Positions 10,874 through 63,873 of a DNA stretch of 64,000 bases are shown here, one piece after another; position 1 is the first letter of the stretch, and each line of letters opens with the position of its first letter. The notes under the pieces were generated by a model that saw nothing but the letters and a program-made list of their open reading frames with translations, was not told the DNA's origin and searched no databases. Made by a program: the position numbers and the translations under genes. The stretch is from Pseudomonas sp. St316. GTDB lineage: Bacteria > Pseudomonadota > Gammaproteobacteria > Pseudomonadales > Pseudomonadaceae. The stretch lies in NCBI RefSeq assembly GCF_018325905.1, contig NZ_AP021901.1, forward strand, positions 2,480,001-2,544,000, read 5' to 3'.

Positions 10874-11057
10874 CGGTGCTTGATCCTTAAGACAATATCG
10901 GATGCTCCTTGAGTCGCATCCTCATGGAGGGTAGGCCAAGTGTAGATTCATTCGGAGTTTTTTATCCCATCTGTGCTTAACTCATCCGCAGCACCCAGCG
11001 AAGGACTGATTCAGTAACGCCGCAATAATGGCCGTGATTCATGGAAGGGTTTTACCG
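10874..11057. promoter_or_regulatory. Divergent control region between wzm and wzt
   Basis: This 184-bp gap separates the two halves of the glycan locus, which are transcribed away from each other, so it must hold promoters for both operons. It is more AT-rich than its flanks. I could not assign promoter hexamers with confidence. GGAAGG at 11043-11048 is the likely ribosome site for the ATG at 11058. Confidence 0.5.
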
Positions 11058-13781
11058 ATGTCGTTTGAAGTGGCCATCTGCGCCGAAAACCTGAGCAAGT
11101 GTTATCAGATTTACGATGCCCCCAAGGATCGCCTGTTGCAGATGCTGGTACGCGGCAGGAAGCGTTTCTATCGCGAGTTCTGGGCCCTGGACGATGTTTC
11201 CCTGACCATCGCAAGGGGGGAGACTGTCGGTATCATCGGCCGTAATGGCAGTGGTAAATCCACCCTGTTGCAACTGATCTGCGGAACGTTGATGCCAACC
11301 CGGGGCAGTGTCCAGGGGCATGGCCGGATTGCGGCGTTGCTGGAGCTGGGGTCCGGTTTCAATCCGGAGTTCACCGGCCGGGAAAACGTCTATGTGAATG
11401 CGGCGGTGCTGGGCTTGAGTCGCTCGGAAATCGACGCTCGCTTCGATGACATCCTCGCCTTTGCCAATATCGGCGACTTTATCGACCAGCCCACCAAAAT
11501 CTATTCCAGCGGCATGCTGGTACGGCTGGCCTTCGCCGTTTCGGTCTGTGTCGAACCCGAGATCCTGATCGTCGATGAAGCCCTTTCCGTCGGCGATGCC
11601 TCGTTTCAATTCAAATGCTTGAATCGGCTGGAAGAACTGGCGGCCAAAGGCACGACCCTGCTGTTCGTCTCCCATGACATGAGCATGGTCAAGCGTTTTT
11701 GCCACAGGGTCATCTATCTGCGCGCAGGCCGGGTTGTTGCCAGCGGTTCGCCCGATGAAATGGCCGAGCTGCATTTGCTCGACATGCGCGACGAGCAACG
11801 CCGCTGGGCCAGTGGCGGGGTCATACCGGTTACGCGCAAGTCATTCATGGGCGGGCAGGAGGGGATGGCCTTTGGGACCGAAGAGGGGCATATCAGTGCT
11901 GCCTGCTTCACCAACACCCAGCAGCTTTGCTCCAGTTACCTGTATGGCGACGACATCGAGATTCGCGTCGAGGCGTTGCTGCATGAGTCGATCACCCAAC
12001 CCAACATCAGCTTCACCATTCAGGAAGCCAGGTTGCTGGTGATTGGTGGCGGCAACTTCGCACTGCAACCGGGGCCCGTTGAAAACGGCTGGCGACGTGC
12101 GTCAATCACGGTGCGCTTCCCGGCCAATCTCGCCGAGGGGCGCTACCATGTCACGCTCAAGCTGTTGCATGGCGCGACGGAAGACACCTCGCAACTGATC
12201 GAGAAGCAGGTGGCGCCCTTGGCGTTCGACATGTTGCCCAACCACAAGCATTTCCTGGGCATGGTCGACCTGGGGTTGCAGAGGCTCGACCCTCGCCCGG
12301 CCGAGTCGCTGGCCAAGGCCTGCGGGCCCCAAGGGGAGAAGGTTTTGACGCAACACCTGGAGGAGCAGCCGTGGCAGGTCGCTATATTCGGCACCTTTGA
12401 TGTCGAAAACTATGGTGACCTGCTGTTCCCGATCATTGCCGAGGCGGAGTTGTCCCGGCGCTTGGGTTCAGTCAACCTGCATCGGTTTTCCTATCACGCT
12501 AAAAAACCACCTCAATGGCCCTATGCGGTGACGTCGCTGACAGAGTTGCCTCATGTGGCGGCCAGCCTGGATGGTGTTTTGATCGGCGGTGGCTTCCTGA
12601 TCCGATTCGATAAAGTCGTTGCCCACGGCTATGGTCCGACAACCGCCACTATTCATCACCCCACCGGTTATTGGTTGACCCCGGCGCTTATCGCGCAGCA
12701 GCACGGGGTACCGGTCATGTGGAATGCCCCCGGGATGCATTGCAACGGTATCCCTGACTGGGCCAGGCCGTTGTTGACGATGGCTCTTGAGCAAAGCCAG
12801 TACGTGCGAGTCCGTGATGCACTGTCGCGCGATGCCCTCGGCGCGCTCACCCAGCAGGTCGAGATCGAAGTGCTGCCCGACACCGCGTTCGGCTTGCCCC
12901 GCCTGATCGATGAGCAGCAGCCCTCCACCGAGTTCGTTCGCCTGCGCGAGCAGGCCGGGCTGACCGGGCCCTACATCGTGATCCACGCCATTCATGTGGT
13001 GGAATCTTTTATAAAACTGTTCGAAGACCACGCCGAGGCGTTTCAGGAGTATCAGTTCCTGGTGGTGCCAATTGGTCCTGTCCTGGGTGACGATCCGTCG
13101 GTCATTGCGGCGCGCCTGCCCCAGGCCATCACCTTGTCGTTCTGGCCGCAACCGTTGCTGATGGCGGAAATTCTCAGTCAGGCCCAAGCGGTGATCGGCC
13201 ACAGCTACCACCTGGCAATCACCGCCCTGGCGTTTGGCGTCCCGGTGTTTTGCTCGGCGGATCTGACGACGGGCAAGTACACGGCATTGGCAGGGTTTGA
13301 CTCACTCCACGCGTTGCCGGACGTGGCGACGGTCGATCCGCAATGGTTTATCGCACGCGTGGGCAAGGTCCGGCCATCGCCAGCGGCTTGTGCGGCGGCG
13401 GATCGGTTGGTCGAGCACTGGGACCGTGTCGCTGCGATCATTCGTCAGGGTAAAACGTCGTCCCAGCCCGTATTGGGAGCATTCCTACAGCATCTACCCA
13501 ACCTGCTCGAAGCCGCGGCCGAGGGGCGTGATCCATTGCCGGCTGAATGGCCGGTAAGCCCGGTCGTGCCGGAGCCTGAGGTCATCGAGCCGGCGCCGGA
13601 GCCGGTAGTCGAGGCGCTTGCCCAGCAGCAACGGATTGCCCAGCTCAGTCAGCAACTGGCCCTCAGTGACGCCAGGATGCTTGAGTTGCAGAACTCCAAT
13701 TCATTTCGAATGACCGCACCACTGCGTTCCATCGCCCGTGGTATCAGAAACCTGACAGCGAACAAGAACAGACAATGCTAG
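11058..13781 (+). CDS. wzt: Wzt-type O-antigen export ATPase fused to a polysaccharide pyruvyl transferase-like domain
   Basis: From the ATG at 11058 (ribosome site GGAAGG) the protein has 907 residues; an ATG-less extension to 11028 is open. Residues 1-240 are an ABC ATPase with Walker A GRNGSGKST (61-69), signature YSSGM (149-153), Walker B ILIVDE (169-174) and H-loop His206. Residues of about 260-395 look like the Wzt C-terminal glycan-recognition beta-sandwich. Residues of about 435-770, starting VAIFGTFDVENYGDLLF, resemble WcaK/CsaB-type polysaccharide pyruvyl transferases, with GVLIGGGFL and the later VIGHSYHLAITA. A short coiled coil and an SFRMTAPLR tail end the protein. Ordinary Wzt is about 400-470 residues, so the transferase-like half is an unusual fusion. 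It could cap the chain end that Wzt recognises, which is inference. Confidence 0.85.
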   Translation: MSFEVAICAENLSKCYQIYDAPKDRLLQMLVRGRKRFYREFWALDDVSLTIARGETVGIIGRNGSGKSTLLQLICGTLMPTRGSVQGHGRIAALLELGSGFNPEFTGRENVYVNAAVLGLSRSEIDARFDDILAFANIGDFIDQPTKIYSSGMLVRLAFAVSVCVEPEILIVDEALSVGDASFQFKCLNRLEELAAKGTTLLFVSHDMSMVKRFCHRVIYLRAGRVVASGSPDEMAELHLLDMRDEQRRWASGGVIPVTRKSFMGGQEGMAFGTEEGHISAACFTNTQQLCSSYLYGDDIEIRVEALLHESITQPNISFTIQEARLLVIGGGNFALQPGPVENGWRRASITVRFPANLAEGRYHVTLKLLHGATEDTSQLIEKQVAPLAFDMLPNHKHFLGMVDLGLQRLDPRPAESLAKACGPQGEKVLTQHLEEQPWQVAIFGTFDVENYGDLLFPIIAEAELSRRLGSVNLHRFSYHAKKPPQWPYAVTSLTELPHVAASLDGVLIGGGFLIRFDKVVAHGYGPTTATIHHPTGYWLTPALIAQQHGVPVMWNAPGMHCNGIPDWARPLLTMALEQSQYVRVRDALSRDALGALTQQVEIEVLPDTAFGLPRLIDEQQPSTEFVRLREQAGLTGPYIVIHAIHVVESFIKLFEDHAEAFQEYQFLVVPIGPVLGDDPSVIAARLPQAITLSFWPQPLLMAEILSQAQAVIGHSYHLAITALAFGVPVFCSADLTTGKYTALAGFDSLHALPDVATVDPQWFIARVGKVRPSPAACAAADRLVEHWDRVAAIIRQGKTSSQPVLGAFLQHLPNLLEAAAEGRDPLPAEWPVSPVVPEPEVIEPAPEPVVEALAQQQRIAQLSQQLALSDARMLELQNSNSFRMTAPLRSIARGIRNLTANKNRQC

Positions 13782-14461
13782 ATCTCTCTCGTCTCACGCC
13801 AGCGGCGCTAAAGTCTCACCCGTTCTCATGGGCTGAAATTGGCGGTCTGTATTCGGCCGAGGATGCCGCCGCGTTGGCAGCGTCCTTCCCCCATGATCAC
13901 TTCAAGACGGTGAGTGGTTATGGTGGTGAAAAAAATTATGACTATGAGGCCCGCGCCCTGGTAGACATGGGCACCCATACCATTGCTTTCCCCGAAGAAC
14001 TGAGCGAGGCGTGGTTGAGGCTGGCGCAGGATCTTGTTTCGGCCGGCTATCGAGAGGCCATGTCGGAGCTGACCGGGATTGATCTGCGCAGCGTGCCGAT
14101 GGAGGTCAACGTTTTTCATTACGGCCCTGGCGCGAGCCTGGGTGCCCACCCGGACCTGCCCGATAAACTGGTCACCCATATCCTGTATTTCAATGAGTCC
14201 TGGGACCGCAACGACGGCGGTTGCCTGAACATCCTGCACCGCAACGATCCCACTGCCGTGGCGGCCGAGATCGAGCCCCTGGTGGGTAACTCGGCGATCC
14301 TGGTGCGTTCGGATAACTCCTGGCATGCTGTCACGCCCGTGGTGAGCGGTTGCCATTCCTCCCGCCGCAGCCTGACGGCAACGTTCTACCGACCGGGGTC
14401 CCTCAGTTCCATGTGGCCACCGGGCGACAGCACTCCACTGCATGGATACCCACGTGCTTAA
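13775..14461 (+). CDS. 2-oxoglutarate-Fe(II) oxygenase (prolyl 4-hydroxylase-like)
   Basis: A 228-residue protein. It carries the iron-binding triad H125-x-D127 (GAHPDLPD) and H184 (SWHAVTPV) plus the 2-oxoglutarate-binding Arg at 197/198 (SRRSLTATFY). The FHYGPGASLGAHPD and THILYFN strands fit the 2OG-FeII_Oxy_3 fold. It overlaps the wzt fusion gene by 7 bases and the next glycosyltransferase gene by 20, so it belongs to the rightward glycan operon. The likely role is hydroxylation of a sugar, an acyl group or a protein in glycan synthesis; the substrate is unknown. Confidence 0.83.
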   Translation: MLDLSRLTPAALKSHPFSWAEIGGLYSAEDAAALAASFPHDHFKTVSGYGGEKNYDYEARALVDMGTHTIAFPEELSEAWLRLAQDLVSAGYREAMSELTGIDLRSVPMEVNVFHYGPGASLGAHPDLPDKLVTHILYFNESWDRNDGGCLNILHRNDPTAVAAEIEPLVGNSAILVRSDNSWHAVTPVVSGCHSSRRSLTATFYRPGSLSSMWPPGDSTPLHGYPRA

Positions 14462-16619
14462 GCTCGACAGCACCTTGATCGACCGCGACGCCGCCTTGGC
14501 TCAAAGAGATGCGGCCATCAATGAGCGCGATATTGCCTTGGCAAAAGTCGACTTCCTGCAAAACACCCGTTCGTGGCGTTTCACCCGACCACTGCGCTCG
14601 CTTTTCCGGTGGATGCGTTATGGTTTCAGCGCCACGCAGGAATTCCCCGAGACGGCCGCTGCAATCGTCTACCCGGCCGCACCGCAGCCGTTGCCCAACC
14701 CTGACGTGGCCCCGGATTTCGCCACAAAAGGGCACCTGGATATTCTCTGCTTCGCCAACATTGAGTGGGCTGCACGCTTCCAGCGACCGCAGCAGTTGAT
14801 GAACCAGTTTGCGAGCAATGGTTACCGGGTGTTTTATATCGTCCCCTCCAGTGTGCCGGAACAGGGACAGCTCTATCGGTTGACCTCAGTGGCGCCCAAT
14901 GTTTTTGAAGTGGCGCTGCAGCGTGATGTGCAGGAGGCGTATTACGAAAAAGTAGTGACGCCTGAGAATCATCAGGCTTTGCTACTCGCCATGGCCGCCT
15001 TGGTCGCCGATATGCAGATAAGAACCGCCCTCTCGGTGGTGCATATTGCTTACTGGAGCCCTGTGGCACTCAGCCTGCGAGCCACGCATGGCTGGCGCAT
15101 TCTCTATGACTGCATGGATGACTGGGATGGTTTCCCGAACATCGGCGAACAGCTGCTGAGCGAGGAACAGACCCTGATTGCCCAGGCCGACCTGGTGACC
15201 GTTTCCGCTGCGTTGCTTTACCACAAGTGGTGCGCCCATAACCCACGCTGCGTACTGGTCCGAAACGCGGTGGATTTCGCTTTTTTCCGGCAGCACTGTT
15301 TTACCAATGATGTGCTTAGCGGGCTTGTCGGCCCAGTGATTGGCTACTACGGCGCCTTGGCGCAATGGCTCGACTATCCTTTGCTGGCGGCGTTGGCGGA
15401 CAGGCGGCCAGAGTGGAATTTCATCCTGGTGGGGGATGTTTTCGTCGACGATCTGGCGGGCCTTGAGCACAAGCCCAATGTGCAATTGCTGGGCAGGAAG
15501 CCTTACTCGCAAATGCCGCTTTACCTGGATCATTTCGATGCCTGCTTGATTCCCTTCAGGCTCTACAACGTGACCCATGCGGTCGATCCGGTGAAGTTCT
15601 ACGAGTACATCAGTGCAGGCAAACCGGTGATCTCCACCCCACTGGCGGAGATGAGCATCTATAAAGACTTGCTGTACTTCGCAACCGGGGTCGATGAGTT
15701 CATCGAGCAGATCGAACGTGCCTTGGCCGAGCGCGACCTGGCCCTGTACAAACGACGCGTGGAACTGGCCCGGGCCAATGATTGGAAAGATCGCTTCAAT
15801 AGCATGCAACTGGCTCTCGTCGGGCTGTATGAAAAAGTCTCCATCGTGCTGGTGACGTATAACAACCTCAATCTGACTGTTCAGTGTGTAAACAGCATTC
15901 TGCGCAATACCACCTGGCCCAACTACCAGCTCATTGTCGTCGACAACGGCTCGCAGGATGGTACGGGCGATTATCTTGAGCGCCTGCGCCAAGAGGTGCC
16001 GGCCGCGAAGGTCATCCTCAACCCGGACAACCGGGGCTTCGCTGCGGCCAATAACCAGGGCTTGCGAGAAGCCGACGGTGACATCCTGCTGTTGCTCAAT
16101 AACGACACGGTAGTGCCTGGTGGCTGGCTGGATCCACTGGTCAGGCATTTGAGAGACCCGAGTATCGGCTTGGTCGGACCGGTCACGAATGCGGTAGGAA
16201 ACGAAGCGAAAATTGAAGTTTCCTACACCGATATTCCACAGATGCAAGATTTTGCCGACCGCTACACCGAAGCCCGCAAGGGACAGTCGTTTGATATCTC
16301 GATGCTCGCCATGTTTTGCGTCGCCTTTCGCCGAGACATTCTCGAAGCGGTGGGGTATCTGGATGAAGCATTCGGTATCGGGATGTTCGAGGACGACGAC
16401 TACAGCCGTCGCGTGCAGGCCGCTGGCTACCGGACTGTCTGCGCCGAAGACGCGTTTATCCATCATTACGGGCAAGCTTCGTTCAGGAAGCTGATCGCCA
16501 GTGGTGAGTACCAGGCCCTCTGGGACAAGAACCAGGCGTACTTCGAAAGCAAATGGGGCGCGTGGCAAGCCCACGTTCATCGCGATAAGCCTGGCCTGGA
16601 GACGGCGGACAAGGGCTAG
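14442..16619 (+). CDS. Two-domain glycosyltransferase (GT4-like plus GT2), paralogue of the 7457-9976 gene
   Basis: A 725-residue protein. A short N-terminal repeat-rich helix (DRDAALAQRDAAINERD) leads into TRSWRFTRPLRS. A GT-B-like domain comes next, with DILCFANIEW, RFQRPQQLM, LYDCMDDWDGFPN, VIGYYGALAQWLD and YEYISAGKPVIS. The C-terminal GT2 domain has SIVLVTYNN, VVDNGSQDGT, NPDNRGFAAANN, LLNNDTVV and MFEDDDYSRRV. The domain order and many motifs match the leftward gene 7457-9976, minus most of its long coiled coil. It is the last gene of the rightward operon and is followed directly by the REP array. Confidence 0.85.
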   Translation: MDTHVLKLDSTLIDRDAALAQRDAAINERDIALAKVDFLQNTRSWRFTRPLRSLFRWMRYGFSATQEFPETAAAIVYPAAPQPLPNPDVAPDFATKGHLDILCFANIEWAARFQRPQQLMNQFASNGYRVFYIVPSSVPEQGQLYRLTSVAPNVFEVALQRDVQEAYYEKVVTPENHQALLLAMAALVADMQIRTALSVVHIAYWSPVALSLRATHGWRILYDCMDDWDGFPNIGEQLLSEEQTLIAQADLVTVSAALLYHKWCAHNPRCVLVRNAVDFAFFRQHCFTNDVLSGLVGPVIGYYGALAQWLDYPLLAALADRRPEWNFILVGDVFVDDLAGLEHKPNVQLLGRKPYSQMPLYLDHFDACLIPFRLYNVTHAVDPVKFYEYISAGKPVISTPLAEMSIYKDLLYFATGVDEFIEQIERALAERDLALYKRRVELARANDWKDRFNSMQLALVGLYEKVSIVLVTYNNLNLTVQCVNSILRNTTWPNYQLIVVDNGSQDGTGDYLERLRQEVPAAKVILNPDNRGFAAANNQGLREADGDILLLLNNDTVVPGGWLDPLVRHLRDPSIGLVGPVTNAVGNEAKIEVSYTDIPQMQDFADRYTEARKGQSFDISMLAMFCVAFRRDILEAVGYLDEAFGIGMFEDDDYSRRVQAAGYRTVCAEDAFIHHYGQASFRKLIASGEYQALWDKNQAYFESKWGAWQAHVHRDKPGLETADKG

Positions 16620-16630
16620 GTCGCGACAAA

Positions 16631-18611
16631 GGCCATCGCGAGCAGGCTCGCTCCCACATGGATTTTTTGGCAGCCACAAAACGCATACACACCGCAGAAC
16701 CCTGTGGGAGCTGAGCTTGCTCGCGATAGCGGTGGGGCTGCTTGCATCGATGTTGAATGTGCCGCCGCCATCGCGAGCAAGCTCGGCTCCCACAGGGGTT
16801 CTGGGGTTTTCACGATCCTGCATTCACCACACCCAAGCAACCGGCTTTCAGTACCACCGCGCCTCGCCTGGCGGGGGTTTCTCCCACAGGGATTGGGGAT
16901 TGATGCGATGCCTGTGAACAACCCGAAAAAAACGCTGGGAGCGAGCTTGCTCGCGAATAGGCCGGCACATCCAACATCACCAGAAACTGATACACCGCCA
17001 TCGCGAGCAAGCTCGCTCCCACATGGATTTTTTGGCAGCCACAAAACGCATACACACCGCAGAACCCTGTGGGAGCTGAGCTTGCTCGCGATAGCGGTGG
17101 GGCTGCTTGCATCGATGTTGAATGTGCCGCCGCATCGCGAGCAAGCTCGGCTCCCACAGGGGTTCTTGGGTTTTCACGATCCTGCATCACCACACCCAAG
17201 CAACAGCTTTTCAGTACCACCGCGCCTCGCCTGGGGGGTGTTTCTCCCACAGGGATTGGGGATGGGTGCGATGCCTGTGAACAACCTGAAAAAACGCTGG
17301 GAGCGAGCTTGCTCGCGAATAGGCCGGCACATCCAACATCACCAGAAACTGATACACCGCCATCGCGAGCAGGCTCAGCTCCCACATGGATTTTTTGGCA
17401 GCCACAAAACGCATACACACCGCAGAACCCTGTGGGAGCTGAGCTTGCTCGCGATAGCGGAGGGGCTGCTTGCATCGATGTTGAATGTGCCGCCGCATCG
17501 CGAGCAGGCTCGGCTCCCACAGGGGTTCTTGGGTTTTCACGATCCTGCATTCACCACACCCAAGCAACAGGCTTTCAGTACCGCCGCGCCTCGCCTGGCG
17601 GGGGTTTCTCCCACAGGGATTGGGGATGGATGCGATGCCTGTGAACAACCCGAAAAAACGCTGGGAGCGAGCCTGCTCGCGAATAGGCCGGCACATCCAA
17701 CATCACCAGAAACTGATACACCGCCATCGCGAGCAGGCTCGCTCCCACATGGATTTTCCGGCAGCCACAAAACGCATGCACACCGCAGATCCCTGTGGGA
17801 GCTGAGCTTGCTCGCGATAGCGGTGGGGCTGCTTGCATCGATGTTGAATGTGCCGCCGCCATCGCGAGCAAGCTCGGCTCCCACAGGGGTTCTTGGGTTT
17901 TCACGATCCTGCATTCACCACACCCAAACAACAGGCTTTCAGTACCACCGCGCCTCGCCTGGCGGGGGTTTCTCCCACAGGGATTGGGGATGGATGCGAT
18001 GCCTGTGAACAACCCGAAAAAACGCTGGGAGCGAGCTTGCTCGCGAATAGGCCGGCAGATCCAACATCACCAGAAACTGATACACCGCCATCGCGAGCAG
18101 GCTCGCTCCCACATGGATTTTTTGGTAGCCACAAAACGCATGCACGCCGCAGAACCCTGTGGGAGCTGAGCTTGCTCGCGATAGCGGTGGGGCTGCTTGC
18201 ATCGATGTTGAATGTGCCGCCGCCATCGCGAGCAAGCTCGGCTCCCACAGGGGTTCTGGGGTTTTCACGATCCTGCATTCACCACACCCAAGCAACAGGC
18301 TTTCAGTACCACCGCGCCTCGCCTGGCGGGGGTTTCTCCCACAGGGATTGGGGATGGATGCGATGCCTGTGAACAACCCGAAAAAACGCTGGGAGCGAGC
18401 TTGCTCGCGAATAGGCCGGCAGATCCAACATCACCAGAAACTGATACACCGCCATCGCGAGCAGGCTCGCTCCCACATGGATTTTTCGGCAGCCACAAAA
18501 CGCATGCACGCCGCAGAACCCTGTGGGAGCTGAGCTTGCTCGCGATAGCGGTGGGGCTGCTTGCATCGATGTTGAATGTGCCGCCGCCATCGCGAGCAAG
18601 CGCGGTCCCAC
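16631..18611. repeat. Array of about 364-bp tandem units built from REP palindromes (5 full units plus a partial sixth)
   Basis: Near-identical units begin at 16634, 16999, 17361, 17725, 18089 and 18453 (spacing 365, 362, 364, 364 and 364); the last stops after about 158 bp. Each unit carries four REP-like palindromes in two inverted pairs: CATCGCGAGCAGGCTCGC, then GTGGGAGCTGAGCTTGCTCG, then GCGAGCAAGCTCGGCTCCC, then GGGAGCGAGCTTGCTCGCG. The middle two carry an extra base compared with the usual core. A further half-site (TTTCTCCCACAGGGATTGGG) precedes the last of them. Units differ by scattered substitutions and one-base indels. The array fills the gap between two convergent genes. Long open frames through it on both strands are repeat artefacts and I do not call them genes. 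Confidence 0.95.
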
Positions 18612-18645
18612 CAAGAACCATCCCGCCTATTCGCCCAGGACTCTC

Positions 18646-19527
18646 TCAGCGCCCAGGCAAATCCTCAGCCATCAGGTGAAACGCCCTGGGCGCAAAACCA
18701 AGCCGATCGCTGGCGGGTGAATGGTCAAACACCAAGTCCTCGTTCATCCGCGCCACCAGCGCACTTGAAAGATGTCGATAGCGCGGCAGGCACCGCATGA
18801 TCGAAACGCCCCGGCTTAAGACCTGGGCGGGGAGGGGCAGCGTTCGCTCCGGACGTCCCATGGCCTGGAATATTCGCCTCACCATTGCGTGATAAGGCAA
18901 CACTTCCCCGCCTGAAAGGTTGTAGCCGCCACTGGGCAGGCCAGGCGTGCTCATCGCCGACAGGCACGCCTGGATCACGTCATCAGCATGCACCGGTTGG
19001 CGCAGTCCGGTTCCGCCGCCGATGAGCGGGAAAAAACCGAAGCGTTGAATGAAACGGGCAATTTGCGCGATGTTCTTGTCGCGGCCAAAGCCATAGATCA
19101 TGGTCGGTCGCAGGATCACCCATTCGATTTGCCGTTCGATCGCCCACTGCTCGAACTGTTCTTCTGCGCGTATCAAGCGTTGCGCCACCTCCCGTTCCCG
19201 AGCGTCCGGCGATGTTTGTTTGGTAACACGGCTGGTGGAGGACAGCGCGACGACGCGTTTGACGTGAGTGTTGGCAAGGTGCTCCAGATAATCGGGTAAC
19301 ACCCAAATGGGGGCAAATGACAGGAAGGTGTCCAGCGTCAGTCCGTGCCAGTTGTCAGCGTTTCGCCACGTCACGCCCAGGCCGGACACCTTGGGCAGAC
19401 TTCGAGTGAAGGCGCTCGTTGCGTGACCGGTTTGTGCCAGCAATGGCAGGGCGCGTTCGCCCAGGAGGCTGGAACCGCCCAATATTCCTATTCGCAATTG
19501 AAGTCTCTTATCGAAGGTTCCATGCAT
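18646..19527 (-). CDS. Atypical SDR / NAD(P)-binding sugar-nucleotide dehydratase-like protein
   Basis: A 293-residue protein with an N-terminal Rossmann strand and GGSSLLGE glycine motif, ALSSTSR where the catalytic Ser usually lies, and ILRPTMIYG, the extended-SDR segment before substrate binding. The usual Y-x3-K is not visible after the SSTS strand, so it may be an atypical SDR. The ATG at 19527 overlaps the upstream glycosyltransferase gene by 20 bases; TTG at 19497, just before RIGILGG, would avoid the overlap. It forms an operon with the GT2 gene and probably acts on a sugar nucleotide or lipid-linked sugar. Substrate unknown. Confidence 0.75.
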   Translation of the reverse strand: MHGTFDKRLQLRIGILGGSSLLGERALPLLAQTGHATSAFTRSLPKVSGLGVTWRNADNWHGLTLDTFLSFAPIWVLPDYLEHLANTHVKRVVALSSTSRVTKQTSPDAREREVAQRLIRAEEQFEQWAIERQIEWVILRPTMIYGFGRDKNIAQIARFIQRFGFFPLIGGGTGLRQPVHADDVIQACLSAMSTPGLPSGGYNLSGGEVLPYHAMVRRIFQAMGRPERTLPLPAQVLSRGVSIMRCLPRYRHLSSALVARMNEDLVFDHSPASDRLGFAPRAFHLMAEDLPGR

Positions 19528-63418: not shown

Positions 63419-63873
63419 GGAGATAAACCTCGTCGCATAGGTCTTGGTGGAAAATTCCTTGCTCCTGCCGACCAGGGGTGGCGTACAAGTCGGTTCAGGC
63501 GGGGAGGCGACGGGATGAACGATGGGCTCGAGGGGAAAGTGAGCAGGTAGGGGCGAACTGCGGGCGCATTCGGGCGTCGTGGGCCTCCATACGAACTCAG
63601 AGTGATGCCGGGTTACCTAGTTACGCTTCCGTCCCTCGGGACAACTTCGTTCCAGTCGCAACCTCGTCAAACACACCTTGTGGGCGGTACAGACACGAAT
63701 CGGCTCGCAGGGTAGTTGCAAGCGTCGACCCGAAGGCCCTTGCCAGGGCCCCTGATTAGCGGGAGCGAGGCCATCATGCCTTCGGTTTTTTGGCTCGTCA
63801 AACGTTTTGTAGTGCTTTTTTTATGGCACTACATCTTTGGTCTAATACGACTCATCAGTCAGTTTTTGGTGCT
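63419..63873. other. Gap upstream of aceA, with a short hydrophobic frame and an inverted repeat
   Basis: This gap must hold the aceA promoter; I could not assign its hexamers. A small plus-strand frame at 63776-63925 (49 residues, hydrophobic, GAGG before the ATG) overlaps the edge gene and is doubtful. TGTAGTGC (63808-63815) and GCACTACA (63826-63833) form an 8-bp stem that may end the leftward edge gene. Confidence 0.5.

What the first reader, a model, noticed from the sequence alone, without database searches (positions are those of the whole stretch)
16631..18611. REP-based tandem megasatellite of about 364-bp units
Five full units and a partial sixth (starts 16634, 16999, 17361, 17725, 18089, 18453) each hold four REP palindromes in two inverted pairs. 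REPs usually occur as single pairs, as at the six other sites in this window; here whole pairs and spacer have been amplified head to tail. Units are nearly identical, so amplification or homogenisation is recent. Two of the four palindromes per unit carry a shared one-base insertion (GAGCTGAGC/GCTCGGCTC). The copy number may vary between strains and could affect the glycan operon's 3' end.
Basis: partly seen in the sequence, partly recalled or inferred. Interest (0 to 1): 0.72.

Follow-up and report, generated by a model that had tools for sequence, protein, structure and literature searches.

The report
Repeat array with captured gene end
Between two sugar-processing genes of a Pseudomonas bacterium, a five-fold tandem repeat made of known mobile hairpin elements turns out to be a hybrid: roughly half of each repeat, including the tail end of a lipid-A-type gene, matches another place on the chromosome, which leaves a traceable record of how such hairpin elements move and multiply.

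Summary
The array is real: 16632-18611, 364-bp period, 5.4 copies, 96% matches, with 23 REP palindromes that form 11 hairpin pairs (REPINs, the last one degraded) plus one edge REP. Tandem REPIN arrays are a known kind (Bertels & Rainey 2011, passages) and common in this genome: 29 of 44 stretches compared hold one, the other 28 with base periods of 115-138 bp. What is unusual is the unit: a chimera. REPIN B, an 85-bp flank and one spacer are of the type found at the 3' end of an lpxL-family acyltransferase gene 2.48 Mb away, including the last 35 nt of its coding sequence. The rest (REPIN A, short spacer) resembles the local slot in relatives. The whole chimeric segment was found in 0 of 397 other genus genomes. 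In nine informative relatives the slot holds no REP (4), one REP, one REP pair, or a 134-bp array. A few shared sites suggest capture within this lineage. Likely route: copying of an lpxL-locus block, REPIN-REPIN recombination, then unequal crossing-over (inferred). New variant of a known kind; no function shown.

The parts
16632..18611 (.). Tandem array, 364-bp unit, 5.4 copies
   Evidence: TRF; unit alignment
16636..16657 (-). REP1: right arm of REPIN A at the left edge of the array; its left arm is not recognised by the pattern
   Evidence: left edge compared with G267 and P. zanjanensis slots
16658..16703 (.). Short spacer S (unit 1), local type: its only outside match at E <= 1e-6 among the loci held is the same slot in G267, 86.7% over 60 bp
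16704..16793 (.). REPIN B (unit 1); the unit consensus is 100% identical over 96 bp to some REPINs of the lpxL-locus array
16794..16882 (-). Captured flank of the lpxL-family gene (source about G000:16795-16882); window 16848-16882 corresponds to the last 35 nt of its coding sequence, stop included
16881..16882 (+). Chimeric junction GTTTC|TCCCAC (unit 1); the overlap between the two parents is just CT
16882..16934 (.). Spacer S' (unit 1), type of the lpxL-locus inter-REPIN spacer (87% over 62 bp)
16935..17022 (.). REPIN A (units 1/2); best outside matches are slots of G340 (88.6%) and P. zanjanensis (79.7% over a longer stretch), with other REPINs of this genome close behind (about 85%)
16997..17358 (.). 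Unit 2 (362 bp)
17359..17722 (.). Unit 3
17723..18086. Unit 4 (query)
18087..18450 (.). Unit 5
18451..18611 (.). Partial unit 6, ends in a degraded right arm of REPIN B
14442..16619 (+). Glycosyltransferase gene (GT family 2 and group 1 domains), ends 12 bp before the array
18646..19527 (-). NAD-dependent epimerase/dehydratase-family gene, convergent, ends 34 bp after the array

Best explanation
A tandem array of REPINs (paired REP hairpins, thought to be non-autonomous elements served by a RAYT transposase) whose 364-bp unit is a chimera of two loci. SHOWN by sequence: the unit holds a block of the type found at the 3' end of an lpxL-family acyltransferase gene at about 16.8 kb of the chromosome [last 35 nt of the gene - intergenic flank - REPIN - inter-REPIN spacer], with a CT overlap at the joint, set beside REPIN/spacer sequence resembling the local slot of relatives. 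SUPPORTED by a few shared sites only: the donor was this lineage's own lpxL locus, after the split from the sampled relatives. INFERRED: a copy of the lpxL block was closed on itself (circle or transient tandem duplication), entered the glycan-gene slot by one homologous exchange between its REPIN and a resident REPIN, and the resulting composite (about 230 + 134 bp) was multiplied by unequal crossing-over. The array is most likely a selfish or neutral by-product in a tolerant convergent-gene gap, not a dedicated device.
For: Array and unit. REPIN structure. lpxL-tail match: 84-94 bp at 91-92%, E 9e-29 in the whole genome; the source gene is a 295-aa lysophospholipid acyltransferase (NF004190, 638.7 bits, cut-off 377) ending at G000:16829. 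Sliding 40-bp comparison: offsets 85-157 and 181-229 match the lpxL locus at 85-100% and the two local slots at 47-75%; offsets 13, 49 and 61 match G267's slot (0.93, 0.75, 0.90) better than the lpxL locus (0.80, 0.50, 0.60). Size fits: home block from 16795 to about 17028, some 230 bp, plus one local repeat of 134 bp. Units and own home share column 40 against all nine other homes, and columns 17 and 189 against eight of nine (the exception is G239 both times; at 189 it lacks the REPIN); at 7 columns the units keep the majority state where the first copy at the present source changed. Own home, G281 and units share an indel of about 20 columns and column 75. Whole chimeric segment in 0 of 397 other genomes. 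In the 44 stretches compared no other array showed such a capture: this one matches a foreign flank over 85 bp, the other hits printed (best 40 rows) are 32-39 bp. A RAYT with the same REP type on both sides lies at G000:1768254-1768712.
Against: The circle, the single exchange and unequal crossing-over are not observed; gene conversion or template switching at a 2-nt overlap would leave much the same sequence. REPIN A's local parentage is only moderately supported: its best outside matches are 80-89%, other REPINs of this genome reach about 85%, and at offsets 301-325 the lpxL locus matches as well as or slightly better than the local slots. Spacer S' is closer to the lpxL-locus spacer of another species, G039 (94%), than to the own (87%), and the flank is as close to G281's lpxL locus as to the own (91.7% each), so a donor in a related strain is not excluded. 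Only one of the shared sites is free of exceptions, and two of the seven 'changed' columns (165, 178) lie in the first REPIN of the home array only, since inner copies match REPIN B fully. Non-neighbouring units 1 and 5 share a variant, which simple stepwise duplication does not predict.
Confidence: 0.75

Rival explanations
1. RAYT-made transduction: the cognate REP transposase cut single-stranded DNA at two C|T sites around the lpxL-locus REPIN, closed a circle that included host flank, and this circle was integrated at the glycan locus. A special case of the best explanation that names the enzyme.
For: The junction reads GTTTC|TCCCAC, with CT the only overlap. E. coli and S. maltophilia REP transposases cut at CT, and for E. 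coli sites 5' or 3' of the REP and a few distant ones are reported (PMC8266576 passages). A model in which RAYT-processed circular intermediates give REP arrays is cited in PMC3733652 (passages). A RAYT with the same REP type is present.
Against: CT at one junction is weak evidence (about 1 in 16 for a random two-base overlap, own estimate). The tag here is GTGG, not GTAG; in the Marinomonas system, which cuts CT and CA, changing GTAG to GTGG moved one kind of cut to CC, which speaks against C|T for a GTGG tag. The cuts would lie some 50 and 150 nt from the REP. The specificity of this RAYT is unknown.
Confidence: 0.15
2. Plain local tandem duplication of two neighbouring REPINs with their spacer (the first reader's model; also the published description of tandem REPIN clusters with repeated flanks).
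For: Tandem clusters of REPIN plus flank are described and are common in this genome; the short spacer is local in type.
Against: The long spacer carries the 3' end of a gene whose home is 2.48 Mb away, with the same gene end (one residue differs in one) in all nine relatives; none of the nine informative slots has that flank.
Confidence: 0.05
3. The composite was imported ready-made by horizontal transfer from another Pseudomonas.
For: Spacer S' is 94% like that of G039's lpxL locus against 87% for the own one; flank equally like G281's and the own.
Against: 0 of 397 other sampled genomes hold the whole chimeric segment; the units share a few sites with the own lpxL locus; the flanking genes are in the ordinary syntenic place.
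Confidence: 0.12
4. The array is a functional device (transcription punctuation, mRNA 3'-end protection, gyrase or nucleoid site) kept by selection at the convergent gene ends.
For: Lies between two convergent genes, 12 and 34 bp from their stop codons; strong hairpins; such roles are hypothesised for REPs (abstract of PMC3733652 as listed).
Against: Four of nine informative relatives have no REP in the slot by the pattern used and others have one REP or one pair; terminator-like sites are no more than in shuffles (3 against a mean of 2.4) and there is no promoter-like site; no Rfam match inside.
Confidence: 0.1

Closest known systems
Tandem REPIN clusters of Pseudomonas fluorescens SBW25 (Bertels & Rainey 2011, PMC3116915; passages seen)
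   Same: Head-to-tail, nearly identical REPINs with their flanking sequence; RAYT-bearing genome. That paper reports 16 such clusters, the largest of four REPINs plus a REP and over 700 bp.
   Different: Here the unit holds two REPIN types and DNA traceable to another locus including a gene's 3' end; the array is 1980 bp with 11 REPIN pairs.
GI-GIII mixed REP tandem arrays of SBW25 (same paper, passages seen)
   Same: Two REP types alternate with fixed unequal spacings in a tandem array; near-identical arrays occur at two distant places.
   Different: Those are described as arrays of single REPs (112 + 72 bp spacings); this one alternates whole REPINs. No source gene is named for them in the passages seen.
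GTAG-1 REP clusters of pseudomonads (PMC3733652; passages seen)
   Same: REP singletons or dimers repeated in tandem with segments of flanking DNA.
   Different: No inter-locus chimeric unit described in the passages seen.
SMAG palindromic-repeat loci of Stenotrophomonas maltophilia used for length typing (PMC2613905; abstract and outline seen)
   Different: Different genus; unit composition not compared.
135-bp REPIN arrays in the same genome, notably the lpxL-locus array G000:16881-18270
   Same: Same REP family; REPIN B and spacer S' are of the lpxL-locus type.
   Different: 136-bp unit with one REPIN, 10.2 copies, no captured coding sequence seen.

Membership tests
Tandem REPIN array (Bertels & Rainey type) | REPs in inverted pairs that fold into one hairpin with GTGG/GTAG-type ends outward | tested here: met
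   11 pairs in the array, the last degraded; one example of REPIN A and one of B folded, both strands, z -6.3 to -8.5. In REPIN A the left end reads CTGG instead of GTGG.
Tandem REPIN array (Bertels & Rainey type) | Nearly identical head-to-tail copies including spacer | tested here: met
   TRF; 95.9-98.1% between the five full units
Tandem REPIN array (Bertels & Rainey type) | REP type also widespread as single pairs in the genome | tested here: met
   386 matches of the unit in the genome, pairs and arrays together; five pairs and one single REP elsewhere in the window
Tandem REPIN array (Bertels & Rainey type) | Cognate RAYT gene flanked by the same REP type | tested here: met
   G000:1768254-1768712, NF047646 149.9 bits, cut-off 80; same-type REPs at 1768068, 1768136, 1768734, 1768802
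Tandem REPIN array (Bertels & Rainey type) | Unit arises from one locus (REPIN plus its own flanks) - my reading of the published description, not a stated criterion | tested here: not met
   Unit joins local sequence with an lpxL-locus block; hence 'new variant'
RAYT-mediated transposition product | Junction at the transposase's cutting dinucleotide and dependence on RAYT | tested here: inconclusive
   Junction reads C|T, but a GTGG tag went with CC cuts in one system; dependence not testable with these tools
Variable-number tandem repeat locus | Copy number differs between strains of one species | not testable with these tools
   One genome per species is held; between species the slot differs
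Rfam-listed structured RNA | Covariance-model match in the array at gathering score | tested here: not met
   Only SrbA at 63534-63756 in the whole window

The most novel reading that the evidence does not exclude
REPINs transduce host DNA: a REP transposase cutting at sites outside the REPIN made a circle that carried the end of a host gene, and this composite then founded a new array at another locus. REP elements would then shuffle gene ends between chromosomal places, as 3'-transducing mobile elements do elsewhere (that comparison is from own knowledge).
Probability: 0.14. Interest if true: 0.62.

Novelty: new variant of a known kind. Interest (0 to 1): 0.42.

Why it matters
How REPINs move and how their tandem arrays start is still open; the abstract of PMC8266576 calls REP dissemination mechanisms 'poorly understood' (listing). 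This array keeps a tag, the end of an identifiable gene, that names the donor locus and suggests the order of events: capture first, amplification later. That makes models testable which are hard to test because REPINs look alike. It also warns that assembly, gene calling and strain typing over such arrays may mislead, since long chance reading frames run through them.

Tried and rejected
1) Reading the unit as two F-R pairs: replaced by the outward-tag pairing, because single REPINs in the slots of G125 and G340 have that order and the one-base insertions of REP2 and REP3 then fall in one hairpin. 2) Post-capture homogenisation between the two arrays, suggested by 100% identity of REPIN B: dropped as a claim, because REPIN loops at the lpxL locus are alike across several species. 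3) Assembly artefact: not excluded without reads, but units carry private and shared differences and the genome is one contig. 4) Terminator, promoter or RNA-family content: nothing above chance or threshold. 5) Capture as a general habit: not seen in the other arrays compared, but only 44 stretches were compared, 43 fetched from the own genome (most chosen from the 150 or so listed of 386 matches, the rest RAYT places and two hits) plus this one; a capture from a place not fetched would be missed, and only the best 40 rows were printed. This is no census. 6) Open reading frames through the array, up to 434 aa: taken as chance frames of a GC-rich repeat; not searched for homologues. 7) Longest array: at 1980 bp this is the longest of the 29, but not the one with most REPs (26 at 4390767-4392496 against 23 here). 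8) Literature: no report of a REPIN array with a captured gene end appeared in the searches (one search returned nothing at all); the library holds only openly licensed papers, and I saw passages, not whole texts, so this is a weak negative. Not examined: six more distant slot matches (G286, G171, G165, G272, G376, G292) and P. gingeri L028, whose glycosyltransferase side did not align.

Full report
OBSERVATION. TRF reports a single array in the window, 16632-18611, period 364, 5.4 copies, 96% matches; unit starts are 16632, 16997, 17359, 17723, 18087, 18451, and the five full units are 95.9-98.1% identical pairwise. A fuzzy REP pattern finds 34 REPs in the window, 23 of them in the array; the other 11 are five pairs and one single. 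REPs in the array alternate in orientation. Pairing them as in the single REPINs of the G125 and G340 slots (GTGGGAG...CTCCCAC outward) gives: the right arm of REPIN A at the left edge, then five times [short spacer S - REPIN B - long spacer - REPIN A], then S - REPIN B with a degraded end. One example of each REPIN folds into a long hairpin on either strand (z -6.3 to -8.5; 0 of 200 shuffles as good).

SETTING. The window is 2480001-2544000 of a one-contig genome of 6,777,545 bp. The array sits between the 3' ends of a glycosyltransferase gene (stop 12 bp before it) and an epimerase/dehydratase-family gene on the other strand (stop 34 bp after it). The genome looks like a Pseudomonas near P. 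brassicacearum: among the named genomes found, the epimerase gene is most alike in P. brassicacearum CCUG 51508 (92%; records of the own genome may be left out there). The unit matches 386 places in the genome. Of 44 stretches of this genome compared (43 fetched, mostly because they hold such matches, plus this one), 29 hold an array with period 100 or more, and each of these has 4 to 26 REPs; the other 28 have base periods of 115-138 bp, one of them with only 1.8 copies (28 of 41). This one is the longest (1980 bp; next 1730 bp at 4390767-4392496, which has more REPs, 26 against 23). So tandem REPIN arrays are ordinary here, and known in kind: Bertels & Rainey describe 16 tandem REPIN clusters with repeated flanks in SBW25 and mixed GI-GIII REP arrays (PMC3116915, passages); PMC3733652 says most large REP clusters include singletons or dimers reiterated with flanking DNA (passages).

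THE UNIT IS A CHIMERA. The long spacer (about 140 bp) has two parts. Its first 85 bp or so match, at 91-92%, the region just downstream of, and the last 35 nt inside, a gene at G000:15942-16829. That gene encodes a 295-aa lysophospholipid acyltransferase of the LpxL/HtrB kind (NF004190, 638.7 bits, cut-off 377). Its last codons (KRPPGEARWY, stop) are the same in eight of the nine relatives and differ by one residue in G241, so that place is its home. The remaining 53 bp match the inter-REPIN spacer of the 136-bp array that follows this gene (16881-18270; 87% over 62 bp). The REPIN B consensus is 100% identical over 96 bp to members of that array. The short spacer is of the type found in the orthologous slot of relatives: its only outside match at E <= 1e-6 among the loci held is G267's slot (86.7%), and P. 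zanjanensis (L025) carries three copies of a related spacer there, about 134 bp apart. REPIN A is matched best in the slots of G340 (88.6% over 88 bp) and P. zanjanensis (79.7% over 123 bp), with other REPINs of this genome close behind (about 85%), so its local parentage is only moderately supported. A sliding comparison shows the switch of parentage along the unit: clear from offset 85 to 229 (bar a dip at 169), in favour of the local slots at 13 to 61, undecided or slightly in favour of the lpxL locus at 301 to 325. The two parents meet at GTTTC|TCCCAC; the only overlap is CT. Among the 44 stretches, this is the only array with a long match (85 bp) to another stretch's flank; the other hits printed (best 40 rows) are 32-39 bp.

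WHEN AND WHERE. The orthologous slot was read in nine informative relatives; none has a 364-bp unit. By the REP pattern G210, G153, G241 and G313 have no REP; G281 has one, beside unrelated sequence; G125 and G340 have one REPIN; G267 has REP-S-REP; P. zanjanensis has six REPs in a 134-bp array. A tenth, G273, is cut by a contig end right after a REP. In 398 genus genomes including the own, only the own has a match over the whole 141-bp chimeric segment (only two candidates per genome were scored). At the lpxL locus, REPIN plus spacer is old: G340, G388, G035, G173, G010 and G039 have it, and G281 has it with a truncated first arm; G125, G210, G153, G241, G273, G267, G239 and G313 do not show the same structure in the stretch read. 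Alignment of ten homes and five units: units and own home share column 40 against all nine other homes, and columns 17 and 189 against eight of nine (G239 is the exception at both; at 189 it lacks the REPIN). Own home, units and G281 share column 75 and an indel (seven other homes have 8-21 nt there; G039 lacks the region). At seven columns the units keep the majority state while the own home differs, two of these in the first REPIN of the home array only. At four columns the units differ otherwise. The simplest order is: split from the G281 lineage; capture from the own lpxL locus; later change at the lpxL locus; amplification of the composite (about 2-4% between full units against about 8% to the source). 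The evidence is thin, a handful of sites without a tree. Against it: spacer S' is 94% like G039's and the flank is as close to G281's home as to the own, so a donor in a related strain cannot be excluded.

HOW. The home block [gene tail - flank - REPIN - spacer], 16795 to about 17028, is some 230 bp; plus one local 134-bp repeat it makes about the 364-bp unit. A block closed end to end (circle, or transient tandem duplication) and inserted by one exchange between its REPIN and a resident REPIN gives the observed order. This is inference. REP transposases of E. coli and S. maltophilia cut single strands at CT beside REPs (PMC8266576, passages), and circular intermediates have been proposed for REP arrays (cited in PMC3733652, passages). 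The genome has three Y1-type transposase genes over the Pfam cut-off; the one at 1768254-1768712 is a RAYT (NF047646, 149.9 bits, cut-off 80) with REPs of this type on both sides, while the nearest REPs of the other two are of other types. The C|T junction fits but is weak evidence (about 1 in 16 by chance, own estimate), and in the Marinomonas system a GTGG tag, which these REPs carry, went with cuts at CC, which speaks against it. Amplification by unequal crossing-over is the standard explanation for such arrays (own knowledge); units 4-6, and units 2-3, share variants as it predicts, but so do units 1 and 5, which are not neighbours.

FUNCTION. Nothing here shows one. Terminator-like sites do not exceed shuffles (3 against a mean of 2.4) and there is no promoter-like site, no Rfam match in the array. 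Four of nine relatives have no REP in the slot. The array is best taken as a by-product of REPIN activity in a gap where it does little harm; that last point is inference.

VERDICT. New variant of a known kind.

Noticed in passing
window 63534-63756 (-): Match to Rfam SrbA (sRNA regulator of biofilms A), 99.2 bits against a gathering score of 69.
   Followed up: no
window 16704-18008 (+) and other frames in 16501-18679: Long chance reading frames (up to 434 aa) run through the array and could be mis-annotated as hypothetical proteins; the lpxL-locus array has the same (416 aa and others).
   Followed up: no
L163, L181, L183, L184 against L086, L161, L178, L180 (lpxL 3' flank): The spacer after the first REPIN behind lpxL reads in opposite orientation in different species (G281, G035, G173, G010 against G000, G340, G039, G388), as if inverted REPs had flipped it.
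   Followed up: partly
G000:2754834-2756068, G000:4390767-4392496: Two other REPIN arrays score best with three-fold periods (404 and 408 bp), i.e. higher-order repeats of a 135-137-bp unit.
   Followed up: no
L024/L077 between the glycosyltransferase and epimerase genes: In P. brassicacearum CCUG 51508 the slot holds some 300-400 bp of unrelated intergenic sequence next to one REP.
   Followed up: no
G000:4389060-4389487: A 78-bp minisatellite (5.5 copies, 96% matches) near the 137-bp REPIN array with most REPs.
   Followed up: no
window 11028-13781 (+): A 917-aa protein combining an ABC-transporter ATPase, a Wzt C-terminal domain and a polysaccharide pyruvyl transferase domain.
   Followed up: no
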